Shown here in pieces: positions 36,581 through 62,900 of a stretch of 64,000 nt of DNA (its first letter is position 1; every line of letters starts with the position of its first letter). This stretch comes from Liolophura sinensis. Lineage: Eukaryota; Mollusca; Polyplacophora; Chitonida; Chitonidae. The position numbers were made by a program, and so were the translations under genes. Below the pieces are notes generated by a model. It worked only from the letters and a program-made list of their open reading frames with translations, was not told the origin of the DNA and did not search any database. The stretch covers positions 5,146,001 through 5,210,000 of the forward strand of contig NC_088300.1 in NCBI RefSeq assembly GCF_032854445.1, in the 5' to 3' direction.

Positions 36581-36895
36581 ATATATATAGGCCCTACTAT
36601 ATATCTTTTTTTTTGAACGTATGTACAGGCCCATGTACCATGGCTGTCAATTATATAGGCGGATCGAGCCAACTAAAGGCCGAGTGCCCGGAATATCTCA
36701 AACCACCACCCTTAACGAACATGTCATTGACATAGATATACACACCATATATTAAACCGCACAAACGTTGACCAAAAGTTTAATTATTGTATATCACAGA
36801 CTGAACCTATGTAGACAATACAGAGCGTTGGGCTATATATCCTACAGAGAGAGAGATCATAAAGGATAATAGGCTACTATTAATCTTTATAAATT

Positions 36896-37038
36896 AGTTT
36901 ATTTATTTGAGTGGTGTTTTACGCCATACTCAAGAATATTTCACTTATACGACGGCGGCCAGCATTATGGTGGGAGGAAACCGGGCAGAGCCCGTGGGAA
37001 ACCCACCACCATCCGCAGGTTGCAGGCAGACCTTTCCA
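36896..37038 (-). mobile_element. SINE fragment lacking the tRNA head
   Basis: Body and tail of the same SINE family (GTTTTACGCCATACTCAAGA, then CGACGGCGGCCAGC) stop at CAGACCTTTCCA, before the tRNA-derived part. Confidence 0.8.
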
Positions 37039-37186
37039 TGCTATGTACATTAAACATAGCATTCTTGAATAATGTATAACAATGCGTGTCAGGTCAAAAT
37101 GGTCGAGACCTATGACCGATGACTTCAGACCGGAAATAACCCCTTGTTTATCAATAATAATAATAATAATAAAGCTTCTTTAACAT

Positions 37187-40739: not shown

Positions 40740-43700
40740 CTGAGAAGTAGAAAAATAAAACATTATTCATTCATGTATATCATAAACAAATTAAACTATA
40801 AAAAAACCAGACATATCCATTGTTACAGCATGAGATATCTAAGGTATTACAAATTCCTACAAAAGCTTGAAACAAATGTTTAAACAAACACATCATTGTC
40901 ATCCGTAATTCTTCTCTCACATGTCAACACCACACAATTAACTACAACTCATGGTACATTCACAACCAAGGCTATGCTAACACTAGTTCCATCTCCATCT
41001 CCACCTCCACCTCCAAAGTATAGCAGAGCTGTAGAGGGTTCACATAAGAAAGCTTATAAAAAACACAAATGTTACAGCCATTGCATATATCTCATCTTGC
41101 CCTACGGGTATTTAAAAAATGCATCAACAACAAGACATACCTCACCCAAACTTCATCAATGTACATATAGTATGTGTATACATAAATAAATATGTATGAA
41201 TGCTTGAGGTTTAACGTTGTGTTTAACATGTACCCGTAGTTAATTTAAAGGATGCTTTGATATAAATATAAAATGAAACAAACTGAAGTATATTGCTAGA
41301 GAAAGACAGATGTAAATGCTGCATACTAACCCAGATGGTAGTTTATTCTTCTCCTTCAGAAGAACCAGGCCAGCCTGTACCATACAAATTGGAGTGGTGA
41401 CATATCCTGGCTCTGTTCAAACAGATAACACTCATCATGTGTCATACACTCACTGGGAGTCAGTGTTATACATTTAGATAATGCACTAATTGTGGTGTGT
41501 TATACATTTAGTTATAAACTTACTGAGAGTCAGCGTTGCACATTTAGTTATACACTAATTGCTTATCAGTGTTATACATTTAGTTATAAACTTACTGAGA
41601 GTCAGCGTTGCACATTTAGTTATACACTAATTGCTTATCAGTGTTATACATTTAGTTATACACTTACTGAGAGTCAGCGTTGCACATTTAGTTATACACT
41701 AATTGCTTATCAGTGTTATACATTTAATTATACACTTACTGAGAGTCAATGTTGCACATTTAGTTATACACTAATTGCTTATCAGTGTTATACATTTAGT
41801 TATACACTTACTGAGAGTCAGTGTTGCACGTTTAGCTATACACTAATTGATTTTGAAATTGTTTCCTGTCTTAACCCTGATTGTTACTGCCCACAGGTGA
41901 ATAATGTAAGCTGAAACTGTAATCAAAGCATGTAGACTTCTTACTGTTCTCAGAAACAAAGTACATAAATAATGCAAGATTTAGAATTTCTCTGTTGTCA
42001 AATATGTCCTCTGCCCATGTGACGATGAGAGATGACTTGAGCTGTGAGACATGAAAACAACAGCTAGGCATCAGAAGAGTCAGGATCTAGGTTGTGACTA
42101 TCTTACCTGGGCCCACCACCTTAGTGACTATCCTCTTGTCTGGGGCTTCCTCATGCTGAACATCGGGGTCAGAGATCTCCTTACTGAACCCCTCCCCCAC
42201 AAATGTCATGGAGAATGTTGTTCCATCAATCTGTCAATCATAATCATTCAGGATATGAGGTTAACAGGCATAGGGAAATTAGATACCAGAGTGCTTGTTG
42301 ATATCTGTGCCATGAGACAATGTCATCAGATCTGAAGACTTGTTATCCAGCAATAAGTCCCAAGATCTACCAGTTGATTCAAACTTTATTCAGTCCAGAT
42401 TCTGTTAAGAAATTAACACGTGATAAAATTGTGATTGCAATATGATAAATGTAACATTATTTGTTCTGATCTACCTGAAACACATAGTTTTGCCCGACAC
42501 CACCATGATCTTTTGAAAAGGGGGCCATGGTTGGTAAGTCATGATTCTACTGATGACCAGTTCCAATTTAGGAAAATCTTTCAGTTCGGGGAAAAAAAGT
42601 TATGCATGATCAATACATTACCTGAATATAAACATATTCTTCGGACAGGTATTCGATAATGTTTTCTTTAACACTATAATTTGTAAATCAGAACCTTCAT
42701 TCTATCATGTTCAAACAGTGTATGTTTGTTTGAGACAAAGTAGAATATTGTGGTAACTCCAACAAAAGAAATAAGGCATGATTCAACACTTCATTCTTGA
42801 AAAGGTTTAAATAAAACCGAAATATTGAATCATGCATCTCCTTGTATCTTTTGTTGCAGTTACCACAATACTCTACTTTGTGAAGCTTGTCAGTGGAAAT
42901 GAAAATGTTTGAGATGAAATTACCTGCTTTTTTGTTGGCCCTTGATGACTGAAAATCCCAAAAGAGAACAAACTTGGAAACTGCAAGACAAAAGAAAACA
43001 AAATCCATAAGAATCTATTCAGAAGTGAGTGACACACCCACACAATCCCCTTGGCAGTTGAAACAGTTTATTATGTGGAAAATTCAGGTAACTCGTCATC
43101 AGTTTTCAGTGGGCTGTTATAGAAACCAAAAATGTGACTCAGTTGAAAATGAAAGTGCTTTATCCCCACTAGTTTTAAATTTAAATCCCAGTGTAAAACC
43201 GTATGAATTTTATTGTATTCGCATTGCTCAAACTGGATTTTTTTTCAGTCCATTGCTATTAAAACCAGAAATTTGATCAAAAGTTTTAATTCAAAGTGGA
43301 ACCTAGTTCACCTCAACATGAAACCACATACCAAATTTGAAATAGCTTCTTGAAGAAGTTTGATTGCACTGCAATCACTTCATTGAAACCCTTTATTTCC
43401 AGTGAGCAGCCATGGAAAGTTGGAATTTGATTGAAACAGCCCCAGGTTATATAGGACCCCACTTCACTTCACTATGAACCTAGATGCCAATCATGAAATC
43501 AATCTCTGAAGCATTTTCAGTTATATTTGAGAGCAGGCCAATATGAGCCTGCACACCAGATATGAAATATTTCCCTAAAGCGGTTTCACTTATATTGCAA
43601 TCACTTCATTCAGAGAGGCCAAGGGCGGAGACATCATGATCACATACACTAATCCCTTTGGTAAAATAAAGAATTTATCACACTGCATGGTTACTTTTCT

Positions 43701-46700
43701 ATCACTTGACAGAATTTATCACACTGCATGGTTACTTTTCTATCACTTAACAGAATTTATCACACTGCATGGTTACTTTTCTATCACTTAACAGAATTTA
43801 TCACACTGCATGGTTACTTTTCTATCACTTAACAGAATTTATCACACTGCATGGTTACTTTTCTATCACTTAACAGAATTTATCACACTGCATGGTTACT
43901 TTTCTATCACTTAACAGAATTTAATTATGAAGCTTCTTTCACAGGTGTAGATTTATCATACCAGCTTTAATACACAACTGATCTATTTCTATTTTAGGCA
44001 ACAGCTGTAAACTATATAAAAGGGTTCAACCATAGCTATTTTGCACCATTATATCTGCTTCACTATTAAAGTACCATGTTATACCAGGACCAGTTAGAAT
44101 TTGGACAGAAGAAAATATTTCCTGATTTTATTTTCTGCAGAAGTGTCCAAACTAAAACAGATTGATTAATGGGACATGACTCGGAAAAGCTCTTCAGCCA
44201 CAGAAGCTAACCTTTAGAAGCAGAGTTCTACCAAGGCTGAAGGAGGCAAAAACACCAAAGATAACTCCTGCGATGACCGTCAGCACAGCACTCCAGTAGC
44301 TCGGTCTGCAGAAGTATGCATTGAATTGCACCTGAAATCATATCACATATGTCCTGAGTAGGAAACACAGATATCATCAGAAACATACACATCACATATG
44401 TCCTGAGTAGGAAACACAGATATCATCAGCAACATACACATCACATATGTCCTGAGTAGGAAACACAGATATCATCAGAAACATACACATCGTATATGTC
44501 CTGCGTAGGAAACACAGATATCATCAGCAACATACACATCGTATATGTCCTGAGTAGGAAACACAGATATCATCAGCAACATACACATCATATATGTCCT
44601 GAGTAGGAAACACAGATATCATCAGAAACATACACATCGTATATGTCCTGCGTAGGAAACACAGATATCATCAGCAACATACACATCGTATATGTCCTGA
44701 GTAGGAAACACAGATATCATCAGCAACATACACATCACATATGTCCAGAGTATGAAACACAGATATCATCAGCAACATACACATGGCATATGTCCTGAGT
44801 AGAAAAATACAGATATCATGAGCAAAATAGGAGTAAAAGAGAAAAGAGTTCTTTTGGTTGGTCAGTAACACAGACAGTCATAATTACTATAAATACAGGT
44901 ATGTAGGCCACTGCTGCATTAACAACCACTAAATCTACATCAACTTACAACATCAGTTACTAATGTGTACTCAATTTTCAGCAATACTGTAACATTAACC
45001 AAGGATTATCCTCCCCATCAGTCAGTCAGAATAGATTCTGTCAGCCTGTAATGTGGCCAACTTACAGGCCTTAGCTTCTTCTTCTCATAGAAGTATCTCT
45101 GTGAACGATTGACCACGGACCGGTCACTGCCAGGAAATGGCACACAATGACTGTTAGCCTCCTTGCTTTCAAATATCGTCGATCTACAGAAAAAAATGAA
45201 ATGCAAATCCTGACCACAGGCTGAGATTTACAAATGATTATGGACATCATGACTGGACGGTTAAGAGCTAATTCAAGCAGCATTGGGATCCATATCAACC
45301 TCTGTACAGAATATCACTACTTCAAAGAAATGCACTCGAACAGAATATCATCCGAAGTCCAAATCTGAACAAGACACCAGAATTTTGTTGGAGATTGCTC
45401 AGATGTTATGTTTGGCAAAATTGTGTTTGGCCAAGGTTAGTCCCAAACCAACATCAGAGAGCACTTCTGATGCAGTTGCTGTGGCAGTGTGTCACAGTGT
45501 TTGAGACAAAAATTATCTAGCAATTTCGTCTCCACGGCCTTCAGTTTGCAGACAGTTATGTTAAATATTGTTTCGTCTGTCGATTTATCTTAAGCACAAC
45601 ATCAATTTGTTATTTCCTAGGCCGCATGGGTCCGAGATTCCTTGGTGATGTTCAAAGCGAATGGCTCTGCCGACAGCCTAGTCATATTTGGCAAGGGCAG
45701 GTAACTACATCTGGTTTTCAAATGGAGTGTTCTCTGATGTTGGTGTGGGCTATCCATTGCCAAACAACCTTTTGCCAAACCGAATGTCAGAATAATCTCA
45801 GGATAACCGGAATTATACATTCGATAGAGTGTTTGCAGAGGATAATGGAATAGCCCATTGAGAATCTGCAGAAAATAGTGGAACAGTCCACTGAGGGTCT
45901 GTAGAAGACAACTGAACATTTCACTGACGGACTGAAGAACATAATGGAGCAGTCACTGAGTGTCTACAGAGAATAATGGACAGGTCCATTGAGGGTCTGC
46001 TGATGACAAGGTTTTGGTTTGGTTTTTTATTTGGTTAGTGTTTTACGCCATATTCGATAGCGACCTGGAAACCGGGGAGAGCCCAAGGAAACCCATGAAC
46101 AGTCCACTGAGACCCTGCAGAGGATAATGGAGCAGTACACTGAGAATCTGTTGGGAATAACAGAGCAGTTCACTGAGAATCTGTTGGGTATAATGGAGCA
46201 GTACACTGAGGATATGCAGATGACAATGGGAGATGACACTGAGGATTTGTAGAGGCTACTGTAGCAGTCAATGGGAATATTAAAAACAACATAAGAGAAC
46301 AATCCTTGTACAATGGTAATAAAGCCGTCCATGGGCTGTCTTCAGAGTATCATGGAACATTCAACTATCCACCTAATAAAGCCGTCCATGGGCCGTCTTC
46401 AGAGAATAATGGAACACTCAACTATCCACCGAATAAAGCCGTCCATGGGCCGTCTTCAGAGTATCATGGAACATTCAACTATAGACCTAATAAAGCCGTC
46501 CATGGGCCGTCTTCAGAGTATAATGGAACACTCAACTATAGACCTAATAAAGCCGTCCATGGCCGTCTTCAGAGTATAATGGAACACTCACTATAGACCT
46601 AATAAAGCCGTCCATGGGCCGTCTTCAGAGTATCATGGAACATTCAACTATAGACCTAATAAAGCCGTCCATGGGCCGTCTTCAGAGTATAATGGAACAC

Positions 46701-49700
46701 TCAACTATAGACCTAATAAAGCCGTCCATGGGCCGTCTTCAGAGTATAATGGAACACTCAACTATAGATCTAATAAAGCCGTCCATGGGCCGTCTTCAGA
46801 GTATAATGGAACACTCAACTATAGACCTAATAAAGCCGTCCATGGGCCGTCTTCAGAGTATAATGGAACACTCAACTATAGACCTAATAAAGCCGTCCAT
46901 GGGCCGTCTTCAGAGTATAATGGAACACTCAACTATAGACCTAATAAAGCCGTCCATGGGCCGTCTTCAGAGTATAATGGAACATTCAACTATAGACCCT
47001 AATAGAGGAGGATAATTCACGGAAGTTTTACAGAGAAGAATAGTCCATATAAGATAACAGAAGTCGACATCAAAAACATAATGGAGTATTCAATGAAGTA
47101 TCTACATTAGACAATGACACATGTCACAGGATGTTCTGCAAACGATAGTCAGATGGTGCCTCCATATTGTCAATATCCGATAGGATTTAAAAATTGGAGA
47201 TGCCATCTTTTTACATCTGGTAGCAAAATAAGTCAATCTGACAAATAAATGACAGTGACATGGCTAGTTATAAGTAAAAGCATTCACTATCAACATCATC
47301 GACTTTATACTTAATGCTACCTTTTGGGCATCTTGTGATTGCTCCTTGGGACTGGTGTTGGGTGGAGCTGTTTCCGCAAATCTTTCAATTCAGATGCATG
47401 AGCAAATCCATGGACAGCTGACTCAAATGTTGCAAAATGTCCGGCTATTCCCTGTAAAGAGAAACAATCTTTATGGATAGTAGCCTAATAACTGCCATGC
47501 CTACACACTGTTTTTAGCCTACCTGGAAGCATGATAACAATAGATCGGACTTGTTTTCTGTTGGCTCTCAAATGAAAAACTTCATAAAGTTAAGAGGTTG
47601 CTGCATGGAGACTCAGACCACCAACACTGCTGATGGTGGGCATAGCATGGAGACTCACACCAACACTGCTGATGGTGTGTATAGCAATGGAGACTCATAC
47701 CACCAACACAGCTGATGGTGGGTATAGCATGGAGACTCACACCAACACTGCTGATGGTGGGTATAGCATGGAGACTCGCACCACCAACATTGCTGATGGT
47801 GGGTATGGCATGGAGACTCACACCAACACTGCTGATGGTGGGTATGGCATGGAGACTCGTACCACCAACACTGCTGATGGTGGGTATAGCATGGAGACTC
47901 ACACCACCAACACCGCTGATGGTGGGTATAGCATGGAGACTCGTACCACCAACATTGCTGATGGTGGGTATGGCATGGTGACTCACACCACCAACACTGC
48001 TGATGGTGGGTATAGCATGGAGACTCATACCACCAACACTGCTGATGGTGGGTATAGCATGGAGACTCACACCAACACTGCTGATGGTGGGTATGGCATG
48101 GAGACTCACACCAACACTGCTGATGGTGGGTATAGCATGGAGACTCGTACCACCAACACTGCTGATGGTGGGTATAGCATGGAGACTCACACCACCAACA
48201 CTGCTGATGGTGGGTATAGCATGGAGACTCACACCACCAACACTGCTGATGGTGGGTATAGCATGGAGACTCGTACCACCAACACTGCTGATGGTGGGTA
48301 TAGCATGGAGACTCACACCACCAACACAGCTGATGGTGGGTATAGCATGGGGACTTGTACCACCAACATTGCTGATGGTGGGTATAGCATGGAGACTCGT
48401 ACCACCAACACTGCTGATGGTGGGTATAGCATGGAGACTCACACCACCAACACTGCTGATGGTAGGTATAGCATGGAGACTCACACCACCAACACTGCTG
48501 ATGGTGGGTATAGCATGGAGACTCACACCACCAACACTGCTGATGGTAGGTATAGCATGGAGACTCACACCAACACTGCTGATGGTGGGTATAGCATGGA
48601 GACTCGTACCACCAACACTGCTGATGGTGGCTTTAGCATGGAGACTCGTACCACCAACACCGCTGATGGTGGGTATAGCATGGAGACTCACACCAACACT
48701 GCTGATGGTGGGTATAGCATGGAGACTCGTACCACCAACACTGCTGATGGACAAACATTTGGACATGGACAATCGTTTGTTCCATTACCAAAACCTGACC
48801 GCAGCCCTGAAAACTGTATATTAATAGTGTGACACAAAATTTTGGAACAAGAAGCATCAATTTGATTTATTTATTTGATTGGTGTTTTACGCCGTACTCA
48901 AGAATATTTCACTTATACGACGGCGGCCAGCATTATGGTGGGTGGAAACCAGGCACAGCCCGGGGGAAACCAACAACCATCCACAGGTTGCTGGCAGACC
49001 TTCCCACTTACGGCCGGAGGGGAAGCCAGCATGAGCTGAACTTGAACTCACAGCGACCGCATTGGTGAGAGGCTCCTGGGTCATTACGCTGCGCTAACCG
49101 ACTGAGCCACGGAGGCCCCAAGAAGCATCAATATTAAAAACATATTTACCACTACTAAAAAAAAAAGTTAAAGTATACATATTGTATCAACAGTAATTAA
49201 AAAAAGGCTGACTTAAAATAATAAAAAAATGCAGAGAGATGTGTGTAGACAAAGTGTGTGCATCTCACCTCTGGTCCAGAATGGATGTTCACAAAACTCT
49301 CCACATGATTCAGATCCCCTAGAAACCAGAAACATGTATGTATGTATGCCTATGGTGATGAGGAGTCATTAGGTGTGTGTACATTGTGTCTTCTTGTGGC
49401 AAGTCCCACCCAGTCACATTATACAGACAATTCTAAGCTCTCAACTTTTGTAACTTTTTTTGTAAATGATGTTGCCTTATGACGCTATAATCCAGACGTC
49501 TTTTACCAAAAATGTTAGGAGAAATATGGCTAACAAAGTTTGTGAAAGTAGCCCCTGAGTACCAAGCGAGGAAACCAGAGACAATATTGCAGATAGAAAG
49601 TTCGACACGACGAAAAAATTTAACTCTTTCAAGGGGCTGAGTTTGATCAATAAATTTTAAGTGCTTAATTTTATTCTCTACTTTGCATGTTAATTTGACT

Positions 49701-59887: not shown

Positions 59888-59987
59888 CTAGTCAGTTTCC
59901 AGGACAGAGAATTTGACATTGTGTGAGTTCAGTCTCTGGATTAAGCTGGTGTCACAGAAGGCTGCTCCAGGAGGGTACACCCCTCCT
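59888..59987 (-). CDS. SCCPDH: SCCPDH-2 terminal exon
   Basis: GGVYPPGAAFCDTSLIQRLN, then SHNVKFSVLETD and TAG. Two codons longer than the copy 1 terminal exon. Confidence 0.93.
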
Positions 59988-62900
59988 CTGAAAATGTAAA
60001 CAAAAATTCTTTCAAATAATAGCAATGTTATAATATTTCTTAAAATTTTTCAGAATTGTTGAGTGATTGATCAATTTCACTTCAATCTGAGCCTCACACC
60101 AAGCCAGAAAATCAGCAGTAGGAAAATATGTTGCACCACATAGTATTATGATTGTTTGGTACAGGTCAAAACTGTCATTTTTTAACTTTTTATTAATCAA
60201 CTGTAAGATTTGCCATTAAGTCCCACATGAACTTCAAAGTTATACGATTTCCCTCAGAAGACAGTTGTCAGGTCAGAGGGTATTGAGCGGAGTCATCCAG
60301 TATCCTGTCAAGCCTCCATAAAAACAAAGCCAATTATGTAGGTTGGGGCTTGATGAGTGGAGAAAACCAGGCAGAAGTCTGAGTAACCACTGTAACTTAT
60401 CAGGTATTCTGTCAACCCTAAAACAAGGACAAGGCCAAGCATTTAACCTGGGGATTGATGAGTGGAGGTAACGAGGCAGAGGTCAGAGTAACCACTGTAA
60501 CTCATCCGGTATCCTGTCAAGCCGCCATAAGAACAAAGCCAAGTATGTAAGTTGGGGATTGATGAGTGGAGGAAACCAGGCAAAGGTCAGAGTAACCAGT
60601 GTAACTCATCCTGTCAAGCCTCGATAAGAACAAAGCAAAGTGTGTAGGTTGGGGATTGCTGAGTGGAGGAAACCAGGCAGAACTCTGGGCAGAAAAGTGT
60701 AACTCGTCAGGTATTCTTGTCAGACTAAACCACTGTATCTGGTGACGCATTACATGCAATGTTCAAGCGACACTGAACCTTTGGAAGACAAACACATTCA
60801 TGTCATCAGGTAAGAGCTTACAGACTAACACTAGGCCTTATAGCACTGAATCAACATTTGCTGTGGAGGGCTGCAAATCTTGCACTTTTTGGGCTCCACA
60901 AAACTAGTCACTTACTCCTGAGGAAGTTTGTCTCTTTCTTTTAAGAGCACGACTGCTGCCTGAACCAAGCAGATGGGGGTTGTCACATATCCCATGTCTG
61001 GAATGACACATATTGGAGGTGGTGGTGATTTACAGTATTGGAAAAACAAATACTGTCCACTACGATTATTGGTAAGAGAAACATATTCTGGGCAAGACAG
61101 ATATAACATTTATTTGCTAAAAGGATAAAGAAAAAAAAAGCATAATAAAAACACAATCTGTGCAATCACACAGGTCATTATCACTCCTGACAAACACACC
61201 TCTTCTCACCTGGGCAAGTCACACATGATATGATCATTCTTGGCAACACTGTTGCTTTCACCTGGACTGGTCACAAAGGTTGCAACCACTCCTGATAAAC
61301 ACTACGGTTCTCGCCTGTGCCAGTCACACAGGTTGCAACCACTCCTGACAAACACTGCTGTTCTCACTTGGGCCAGTCATACAAGTTACAATCACTCCTG
61401 ACAAACACTCCTGTTCTCACCTGGTCCAGTCACACATGTTATAAGGGCTCCTGATAAACACTGCTGTTCTCACCTGTGCCAGTCACACAGGTTGCAACCA
61501 CTCCTGACAAACACTGCTGTTCTCACTTGGGCCAGTCATACAAGTTACAATCACTCCTGACAAACACTGCTGTTCTCACCTGGGCCAGTCACACATGTTA
61601 TAATGGCTCCTGATAAACACTGCTGTTCTCACCTGTGCCAGTCACACAGGTTGCAACCACTCCTGACAAACACTGCTGTTCTCACTTGGGCCAGTCACAC
61701 ATGTTATAAGGGCTCCTGATAAACACTGCTGTTCTCACCTGTGTGCCAGTCACACAGGTTGCAACCACTCCTGACAAACACTGCTGTTCTCACTTGGGCC
61801 AGTCATACAAGTTACAATCACTACTGACAAACACTGCTGTTCTCACCTGGGCCAGTCACACATGTTATAAGGGCTCCTGATAAACACTGCTGTTCTCACC
61901 TGTGCCAGTCACACAGTTTGTAATCATTCCTGACAAACAGTGATGTTCTTACCTGGACCAGTAACACGTATTATAATCACTCCTGACAAACACTGCTGTT
62001 CTCACCTGTGTGCCAGTCACACAGTTTGTAATCATTCCTGACAAACAGTGATGTTCTTACCTGGACCAGTAACACGTATTATAATCACTCCTGACAAACA
62101 CTGCTGTTCTCACCTGTGTGCCAGTCACACAGTTTGTAATCATTCCTGACAAACAGTGATGTTCTTACCTGGACCAGTAACACGTATTATAATCACTCCT
62201 GACAAACACTGCTGTTCTCACCTGGGCCAGTCAGGTGTGTTATAAGGGCTCCTGATAAACACAGCTGTTCCTGCCTGGTAAAGTTACACAAGTTATAATC
62301 ACTCCTGGCAAACACTGCTGTTCTCACCTGGGTCAGTCACACATGTTATAATCACTATTGGCAAACACTACTGTTCTCACCTGGGCCAGTCACGCATGTT
62401 ACAATTTTTTTATCTGGCTTGAGAACGTGCCGATGATTACCACTGTAACCATATCCTTCAAAGGTCATCACAAATGAAGTGCCATTGATCTAAAAAAAGA
62501 ACACACTGGCATCTGACAATGTTATCCTTCTACATCCTTCAACACAAACGTTCCAATTATTAGTCCTTGTGAAGTTTTTTTTCTTCTGTTTTACATTGCT
62601 TGCAACATAGAATAATTCAATATATTTTAAATTTTAAATGGATTGCCATGTGACATCGACACAAGTACAAGCATCTTTTACTCTTAGTCATATCTGTCCC
62701 ATCAGTAAGGTACATGTACATGCATGACTTTTAAACCAATCTTATCAACCACAGCCAGTGGCCAACTGGTAAAAAGTATTTGATTGTTAAGTGAGATATT
62801 TACCTGTTCTTTGGTTGGTCCTTGGTTAGAAAAAAATCCAGCGGTGAAAAACCTTGGAAACTGAAAATACCAGTACAATAAAAACATATTACTAGGACTG

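What the first reader, a model, noticed from the sequence alone, without database searches (positions are those of the whole stretch)
61185..62489. Minisatellite built from an exon-intron junction: about twenty decoy splice donors after one SCCPDH-2 exon
The exon ending at 62381 finishes GTGACTGGCCCAG and continues into GTGAGAACAG. The following intron is about 1.2 kb of ~53-bp units, each repeating the same ~20 exon nucleotides plus the donor and ~30 intron nucleotides. Most units keep CAG or CAA before GTGAG, so the transcript presents roughly twenty near-identical 5' splice sites in series. I infer that the array arose by tandem duplication of the junction. Use of a downstream donor would append repeat-encoded peptide or a stop. 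This could act as a splice buffer, a source of isoforms, or a neutral oddity.
Basis: partly seen in the sequence, partly recalled or inferred. Interest (0 to 1): 0.75.

Follow-up and report, generated by a model that had tools for sequence, protein, structure and literature searches.

The report
Splice-donor minisatellite in a mollusc gene
In a mollusc gene, the end of one exon together with its splice site has been copied about twenty-two times in a row, an unusual but already known kind of repeat that probably does little harm and recurs in other genes of the same genome, where it could be used to study how cells pick the right splice site.

Summary
On the minus strand a saccharopine-dehydrogenase-like exon ends at 62381; behind it, 22 full copies and a partial one of a 53-bp unit follow, each made of the last 25 exon bases plus 28 intron bases. 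GT is kept in 20 of 22 copies and 15 of 22 match the real donor in strength. Reading on to any copy gives eight added residues, then a stop. Copied donors are not specially conserved and the copied exon piece drifts without codon pattern, so I read it as a largely neutral junction minisatellite. It is not unique: the genome, taken as molluscan from its haemocyanin, has 3,351 triple-donor matches against 672 for the reversed motif. Of 25 other listed donor arrays, 12 repeat the tail of an open exon and one more starts at an exon's donor; eight of these exons have database support (OGDH, RPC1, MH2, ABCC and others). Lancelet 'mirages' and the human ABCA7 and CBS VNTRs are the same kind. I found no report from a mollusc in the library searched. 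No RNA was available, so donor use is inferred.

The parts
62381..62489 (-). coding exon INGTSFVMTFEGYGYSGNHRHVLKPDKKIVTCVTGP(G) of the saccharopine-dehydrogenase-like gene (SCCPDH-2)
   Evidence: open frame joined in phase to the next exon
62381..62405 (-). last 25 exon bases, which form the exon-derived part of the repeat unit
   Evidence: wraparound alignment, TRF
62375..62383 (-). authentic splice donor CAG|GTGAGA
   Evidence: sequence; of the donors tested only this one joins the conserved frame
61163..62380 (-). intronic part of the array, 1,218 bp: 28 bases completing the exon's own unit, then 22 full copies of 52-55 bp and a 19-base partial copy
60998..62380 (-). whole intron, 1,383 bp
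   Evidence: acceptor before ACATGGGATATG at 60997
60916..60997 (-). next coding exon, DMGYVTTPICLVQAAVVLLKERDKLPQ(E)
59888..59983 (-). likely last coding exon, GVYPPGAAFCDTSLIQRLNSHNVKFSVLETD then stop (start of exon approximate)
   Evidence: open frame; boundary inferred
42107..42230 (-). the same exon in the neighbouring paralogue (SCCPDH-1), donor CAG|GTAAGA, no array at this junction
44342..44829 (-). paralogue: 49-bp array of acceptor-like units (pyrimidine run, CTACTCAG), ending just before the exon that starts at 44331
41444..41849 (-). paralogue: 36/72-bp array with CTCAGTAAGT donor-like units inside the intron homologous to the one of the finding, not touching the exon

Best explanation
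This is a junction minisatellite (the lancelet 'mirage' kind): an early tandem duplication crossed the exon-intron boundary, and unequal exchange or slippage then expanded it into the intron. Shown from sequence: the unit is exon tail plus donor plus intron head, with nested higher-order repeats. Inferred: the first, exon-anchored donor makes nearly all functional mRNA, because it alone restores the conserved frame; a small leak to downstream donors gives a stop and probably decay of the mRNA; the array is close to neutral and variable in length between individuals. It is one of many donor arrays in a minisatellite-rich genome, formed at roughly the rate expected if repeat formation does not see splice sites.
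For: Unit anatomy and boundaries. The exon tail is coding sequence with a counterpart in the paralogue. Copies drift: exon-derived bases differ more (0.129) than the intron-derived ones behind the donor (0.066), differences show no third-position excess (0.173, 0.096, 0.115 for codon positions 1-3), donor columns rank 14 of 53 windows (13 distinct of 20 units, copies 21-23 left out). Higher-order repeats: copies 4, 6 and 8 are identical, as are 5 and 7, and units two or three apart are on average more alike than adjacent ones (6.28 and 7.29 against 9.95 differences). Reading up to any of the 22 copies gives the same stop; about 109 bases then lie between the stop and the last junction if donor 1 is used. 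Arrays of period 10 or more cover 8,915 of 64,000 bases of the window, so one falling on a junction needs no special cause. Similar structure in 12 of 25 other arrays. In human ABCA7 a VNTR whose first GT is the exon 18 donor allows canonical splicing besides retention of one unit and other events (PMC5954066, passages); lancelet mirages are reported not to disturb regular splicing (PMC3087553, PMC3902484, passages).
Against: No RNA data exist here. 15 of 22 copies are as strong as the real donor, and classical experiments (recalled) find that the intron-proximal of two equal donors can win, so leakage could be larger than supposed. In ABCA7 longer alleles go with lower expression and more skipping of the next exon, so near-neutrality is not assured. 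Triple donors exceed the reversed motif 4.99-fold (3,351 to 672) while single motifs do so only 2.53-fold (59,903 to 23,644), which would point to an excess at donors, though match counts are dominated by a few long arrays.
Confidence: 0.8

Rival explanations
1. The array tunes expression: longer arrays divert more transcripts to downstream donors or to skipping of the next exon, lowering functional mRNA in proportion to copy number (dose control by decoys plus decay).
For: Strong decoys and a uniform stop after GENSSVCQ; in human ABCA7 VNTR length is inversely correlated with expression and skipping of the following exon rises with length (PMC5954066, abstract and passages).
Against: In ABCA7 retention of one unit was not affected by length. 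No conservation of the donor columns here. No expression data.
Confidence: 0.12
2. Junction arrays are formed or kept preferentially at donors in this genome (a donor-linked process such as transcription-coupled duplication), so they are a genome-wide feature rather than accidents.
For: Excess of triple donors (4.99-fold) over the single-motif excess (2.53-fold); the 52-54 bp band again gives 372 to 75.
Against: The stricter 9-mer gives only 301 to 158. Matches are clumped: two arrays supply most of the 100 listed, so no array-level test was possible. About 60% of single motifs are in excess of the reversed control (from the counts, which include array copies), and 13 of 25 arrays start at an exon's donor, which is compatible with no preference.
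Confidence: 0.15
3. The array length is partly an assembly artefact.
For: Long tandem arrays are often misassembled; one lancelet junction array apparently was (PMC3087553, passage on supplementary file 4).
Against: 13 of 20 units compared are distinct and arranged in nested higher-order repeats; one match in the genome search.
Confidence: 0.05
4. Introner-like or transposon-derived intron whose insertion brought the repeats.
For: None found beyond the repeats themselves.
Against: The genome search finds no second copy (the tool skips very common words); intron position is shared with the paralogue, which lacks the array; the unit contains the gene's own exon end.
Confidence: 0.02

Closest known systems
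Lancelet 'mirages' (Adh3, globin Gb6 and Gb9, troponin C; PGBD5 similar)
   Same: Minisatellite-like tandem duplication of an exon-intron boundary, many units with splice signals; [quoted passage not shown] PMC3902484 passage).
   Different: Here a mollusc, not a lancelet; 22 intronic copies of 53 bp; recurrence in the genome looked at. Lancelet globin and Adh3 cases are said to have RNA support, ours has none.
Human ABCA7 intron 18 VNTR
   Same: 25-bp unit whose first GT is the exon 18 donor; second-donor use (retention of one unit) seen; out of frame (PMC5954066, abstract and passages).
   Different: The ABCA7 repeat is described as starting at the GT, whereas here 25 exon bases are copied; ABCA7 has measured splicing, length and disease data.
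Human CBS 31-bp VNTR, c.1444_1467+7(16_21)
   Same: By its coordinates the unit is 24 exon bases plus 7 intron bases, 16-21 copies: the same plan (PMC2630376 passages; the split is my reading of the notation).
   Different: Shorter unit and shorter intron part; the primary paper (Lievers 2001) was not held.
Internal tandem repeats at exon-intron boundaries of human duplicated genes
   Same: Mostly minisatellites, some at exon-intron boundaries of recent paralogues; can alter splicing (PMC2812944, abstract and passages).
   Different: There they are linked to novel introns in transcripts; here the array lies in an intron shared with the paralogue.

Membership tests
Junction minisatellite ('mirage') | Tandem units that contain both exon and intron sequence across one splice boundary | tested here: met
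   25 exon + 28 intron bases per unit, 22 of 22 full copies aligned
Junction minisatellite ('mirage') | Splice signal repeated in many units | tested here: met
   GT kept in 20 of 22; 15 of 22 as strong as the real donor
Junction minisatellite ('mirage') | Length instability between individuals or cells | not testable with these tools
   One assembly; identical copies and higher-order repeats suggest recent turnover
Junction minisatellite ('mirage') | Regular splicing not disturbed | not testable with these tools
   No RNA reads
ABCA7-type donor VNTR | First unit carries the authentic donor of the upstream exon | tested here: met
   Authentic donor at 62380 is unit 0 of the array
ABCA7-type donor VNTR | Variable number between individuals, effect on splicing | not testable with these tools
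   No population or RNA data
Regulated tandem alternative donors (isoform source) | Alternative donors give distinct usable products | tested here: not met
   Reading up to any of the 22 copies gives the same stop after GENSSVCQ
Introner-like element | Similar copies dispersed in other introns | tested here: not met
   One match in the genome search (very common words are skipped by it)

The most novel reading that the evidence does not exclude
This mollusc genome carries hundreds of junction minisatellites, made more often at donors than chance would give, in essential genes and often with copied donors stronger than the real one; the spliceosome nevertheless uses the exon-anchored first donor, so donor strength is not what decides.
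Probability: 0.22. Interest if true: 0.7.

Novelty: new member of a known kind. Interest (0 to 1): 0.45.

Why it matters
A single array is a curiosity with good precedents. The series is more useful: behind the POLR3A-, GH31- and ABCC-like exons there are donors that score higher than the authentic one, and an OGDH exon and a SMAD-type MH2 exon are followed by donors equal to their own. Such genes are a natural test of how one 5' splice site is chosen among many alike, a question usually approached with artificial constructs (recalled), and of whether junction arrays are a route to new exons and introns, as proposed for lancelets (PMC3087553).

Tried and rejected
Regulated isoform source: rejected because reading up to any copy yields the same stop. 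Selection on the donor copies: no sign in column conservation. Lancelet origin of the genome: the precedent suggested it, but eight matches to the haemocyanin beta-sandwich family PF14830 in a row, and best PDB matches to haemocyanins of that type, KLH1 among them, point to a mollusc; that this type is molluscan is recalled, and the species was not identified. The GFP family search was uninformative because its control rang nowhere. Donor excess as proof of a donor-linked process: not claimed, because match counts are dominated by long arrays. Percentile lines printed were spoiled by rounding and are replaced. In one search the 'exon tail' lengths use a loose threshold and overstate some cases, so I rely on the alignments and sequences; 'decoys' there are GT sites of at least 5 bits within 1,300 bases, not each checked to lie in a unit.

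Sampling: the 25 arrays are those distinct in the listed matches (first 100 each) (5; 14 more; 6 more), all on C1-C3, so not a random sample; L022 and L023 look like copies of one another. Exon tail in the unit: L016, L018, L019, L020, L025, L026 (its 5' end is L046), L040, L041, L042, L043, L044, L045; in L025 the shared tail is only five bases, three of them donor consensus, so that case is weak. L024 starts at an exon's donor but shares two bases. No exon seen: L008, L009, L010, L011, L012, L013, L014, L015, L017, L021, L022, L023; in L008, L009 and L011 other repeats fill much of the flank, so an exon may lie further off. L045 was left out of the table because its authentic donor is unclear. 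The names DERA-like (L019) and ARFGEF3-like (L020) are recalled: L019 had no match in PDB or Pfam, L020 none in Pfam. SCCPDH is recalled too: the likely first exon has a sub-threshold Sacchrp_dh_NADP match (24.4 bits, cut-off 25.1), and the three joined exons around the array had none.

Control arrays: of eight arrays of a scrambled motif (L027-L036) seven gave a row and were checked only for donor-like sites near their edges; three sites were seen at the edges of two arrays, the longest open frame before any being 28 codons (L032 gave no row). One control array (L035/L036) has CTGGTGAGT, itself donor-like, in its unit.

Full report
What is there. The window lies on contig C6 of a 609-Mb eukaryotic assembly. 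On its minus strand a saccharopine-dehydrogenase-like gene (SCCPDH-2; name recalled, with a sub-threshold Pfam match of its likely first exon) has an exon at 62489-62381. Its donor CAG|GTGAGA opens a 1,383-base intron; the next exon begins at 60997. From 62405 inside the exon to 61163 inside the intron the sequence is a 53-bp tandem array: 25 exon bases and 28 intron bases per unit, 22 full intronic copies and a partial one. TRF gives 23.3 copies with score 1467. The genome search finds it at one place.

The donors. GT is kept in 20 of 22 full intronic copies. Twelve have the same nine bases as the real donor, three have CAGGTAAGA, four CAAGTGAGA, one CAGGTGAAA, and two have lost GT. With a recalled donor matrix, 15 copies are as strong as the real donor or within 0.1 bit of it. 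Outside the array three sites on the minus strand of the window reach that strength.

Consequences. The first donor joins GGC CCA G to AC ATG and restores the frame whose protein resembles the paralogue's. Reading up to any of the 22 copies (20 of them with GT) adds 53 to 1,171 bases and meets the same TAG at intron bases 24-26, after GENSSVCQ. Using donor 1 would leave 27 bases of the added stretch and the 82-base next exon before the last junction, about 109 bases, enough for decay by the usual 50-55 base rule (recalled; its validity in molluscs not tested; the last exon near 59983-59888 is inferred from an open frame). So the array offers one truncated product, not a set of isoforms.

Origin and turnover. 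The exon piece is coding sequence with a counterpart in the neighbouring paralogue, where the same junction ends in CCCAG|GTAAGA without an array, so the array was made from the exon and not the reverse. Copies 4, 6 and 8 are identical, as are 5 and 7, and units two or three apart are on average more alike than neighbours (6.28 and 7.29 differences against 9.95): nested, recent expansions. The exon-derived bases vary more than the intron-derived ones behind the donor (0.129 against 0.066), without a third-position excess, and the donor stretch ranks 14th of 53 windows for conservation (13 distinct of 20 units, copies 21-23 dropped). I see no trace of selection for donors or for coding in the copies.

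Not an isolated case. The pattern of three CAGGTRAG motifs at array spacing has 3,351 matches in the genome, the same motif reversed 672, a scrambled motif 657 and its reverse 679. Single motifs stand at 59,903 against 23,644. The nine-base motif CAGGTAAGT gives 301 against 158, and the 52-54 bp band 372 against 75. From the matches listed (the first 100 of each search) I took the 25 distinct arrays and read their 5' flanks. In twelve, an open coding exon ends at the donor that opens the array and its tail is in the unit: an RNA polymerase III RPC1-like exon (POLR3A; PDB E 5.9e-9), GH31 (Pfam 1.8e-12) and a SMAD-type MH2 exon (8.9e-11; only five bases shared), an RNase_T exonuclease (1.3e-5), alpha-L-fucosidase (2.1e-8) and diacylglycerol kinase accessory domain (2.8e-9), OGDH (PDB 6e-21), an ABCC transporter (4.1e-13), and four without a database match among those tried (L019, L020, L044, L045). 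One more (L024) starts at an exon's donor but shares only two bases. For twelve no exon was seen in the stretch fetched. The copied exon tail ranges from 5 bases (MH2) to about 32-42 (L016, L020, L040, L046) in the alignments and sequences printed.

Strength of the copies. In 13 of 13 arrays tabulated, the one of the finding included (L045 left out), at least one later donor scores as high as the authentic one; in POLR3A (9.2 against 12.7 bits), GH31 (9.7 against 12.7) and ABCC (7.9 against 12.3) later donors are clearly stronger. The search patterns select strong copies, so this is partly by construction. Reading on past the authentic donor meets a stop before the second donor in 11 of 13; the exceptions are GH31 and L024. 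That genes such as OGDH and POLR3A (essential elsewhere, recalled) carry such arrays suggests, by inference, that correct splicing tolerates them.

Chance or preference. Arrays of period 10 or more cover 8,915 of 64,000 bases of the window (48 of 10,000 in the neighbouring stretch L007). With so many arrays, some must fall on junctions. About 60% of single CAGGTRAG sites are in excess of the reversed control (from, array copies included), and 13 of 25 donor arrays begin at an exon's donor: compatible with blind formation. The larger excess of triples could mean a preference, but a few long arrays dominate the matches, and I could not count arrays genome-wide. Seven of eight scrambled-motif arrays, checked at their edges for donors, showed none behind an open frame longer than 28 codons.

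A second case in the window. In the paralogue, a 49-bp array (44342-44829) repeats an acceptor-like region: nine of ten units keep AG after a pyrimidine-rich stretch, and the last copied AG lies 22 bases before the true acceptor; use of that copy would bring an in-frame TGA. The array abuts the exon and does not include it.

Known relatives. Lancelet genes have 'mirages', tandem duplications of exon-intron boundaries, reported not to disturb regular splicing and to be unstable in length (PMC3087553 abstract and passages; PMC3902484 passage; the primary Adh paper was not held). The human ABCA7 VNTR begins with the donor of exon 18; retention of one unit occurs and was not affected by length, while longer alleles go with lower expression and more skipping of exon 19 (PMC5954066, abstract and passages). 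The CBS VNTR c.1444_1467+7 has, by its notation, 24 exon and 7 intron bases per unit (PMC2630376 passages). Two full-text searches joining molluscs with minisatellites and splice terms found nothing, in a library limited to open licences.

Verdict. Observation confirmed; origin by junction duplication supported; a special function is not. New member of a known kind, in a phylum for which those searches found no report, and one of a series in this genome.

Noticed in passing
window 44342-44829, minus strand: Paralogue SCCPDH-1 has a ten-unit array of acceptor-like sequences (branch-point-like TGCTGAT in many units, pyrimidine run, CTACTCAG); the last copied AG is 22 bases before the true acceptor and nine of ten units keep AG.
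   Followed up: partly
window 41444-41849, minus strand: The intron homologous to that of the finding holds a different array whose units contain CTCAGTAAGT, so both paralogues carry donor-like arrays in the same intron by different routes.
   Followed up: no
window, whole: About 14% of the window (8,915 of 64,000 bases, 17 blocks) is tandem arrays of period 10 or more, against 48 of 10,000 bases in the stretch next to it (L007).
   Followed up: partly
L026 and L046 (G000 C3:23271050-23275728): About one hundred 44-bp copies (from the span and period) of the end of a diacylglycerol-kinase-type exon, most with CAGGTAAGT-like donors; by span the longest array traced back to an exon here.
   Followed up: partly
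L016, L018, L043: Behind the POLR3A-, GH31- and ABCC-like exons the later donors are stronger than the authentic one.
   Followed up: partly
G000 C8:37880506-37891931: Eight haemocyanin-unit matches in a row, each in an open frame of 429-529 codons, the ground for calling the genome molluscan.
   Followed up: partly
window 36873-37179 and 48866-49093; also L007, L009, L019, L020: A dispersed repeat with similar translations (such as YAVLKNISLIRRRPALWW) recurs, perhaps a short interspersed element.
   Followed up: no
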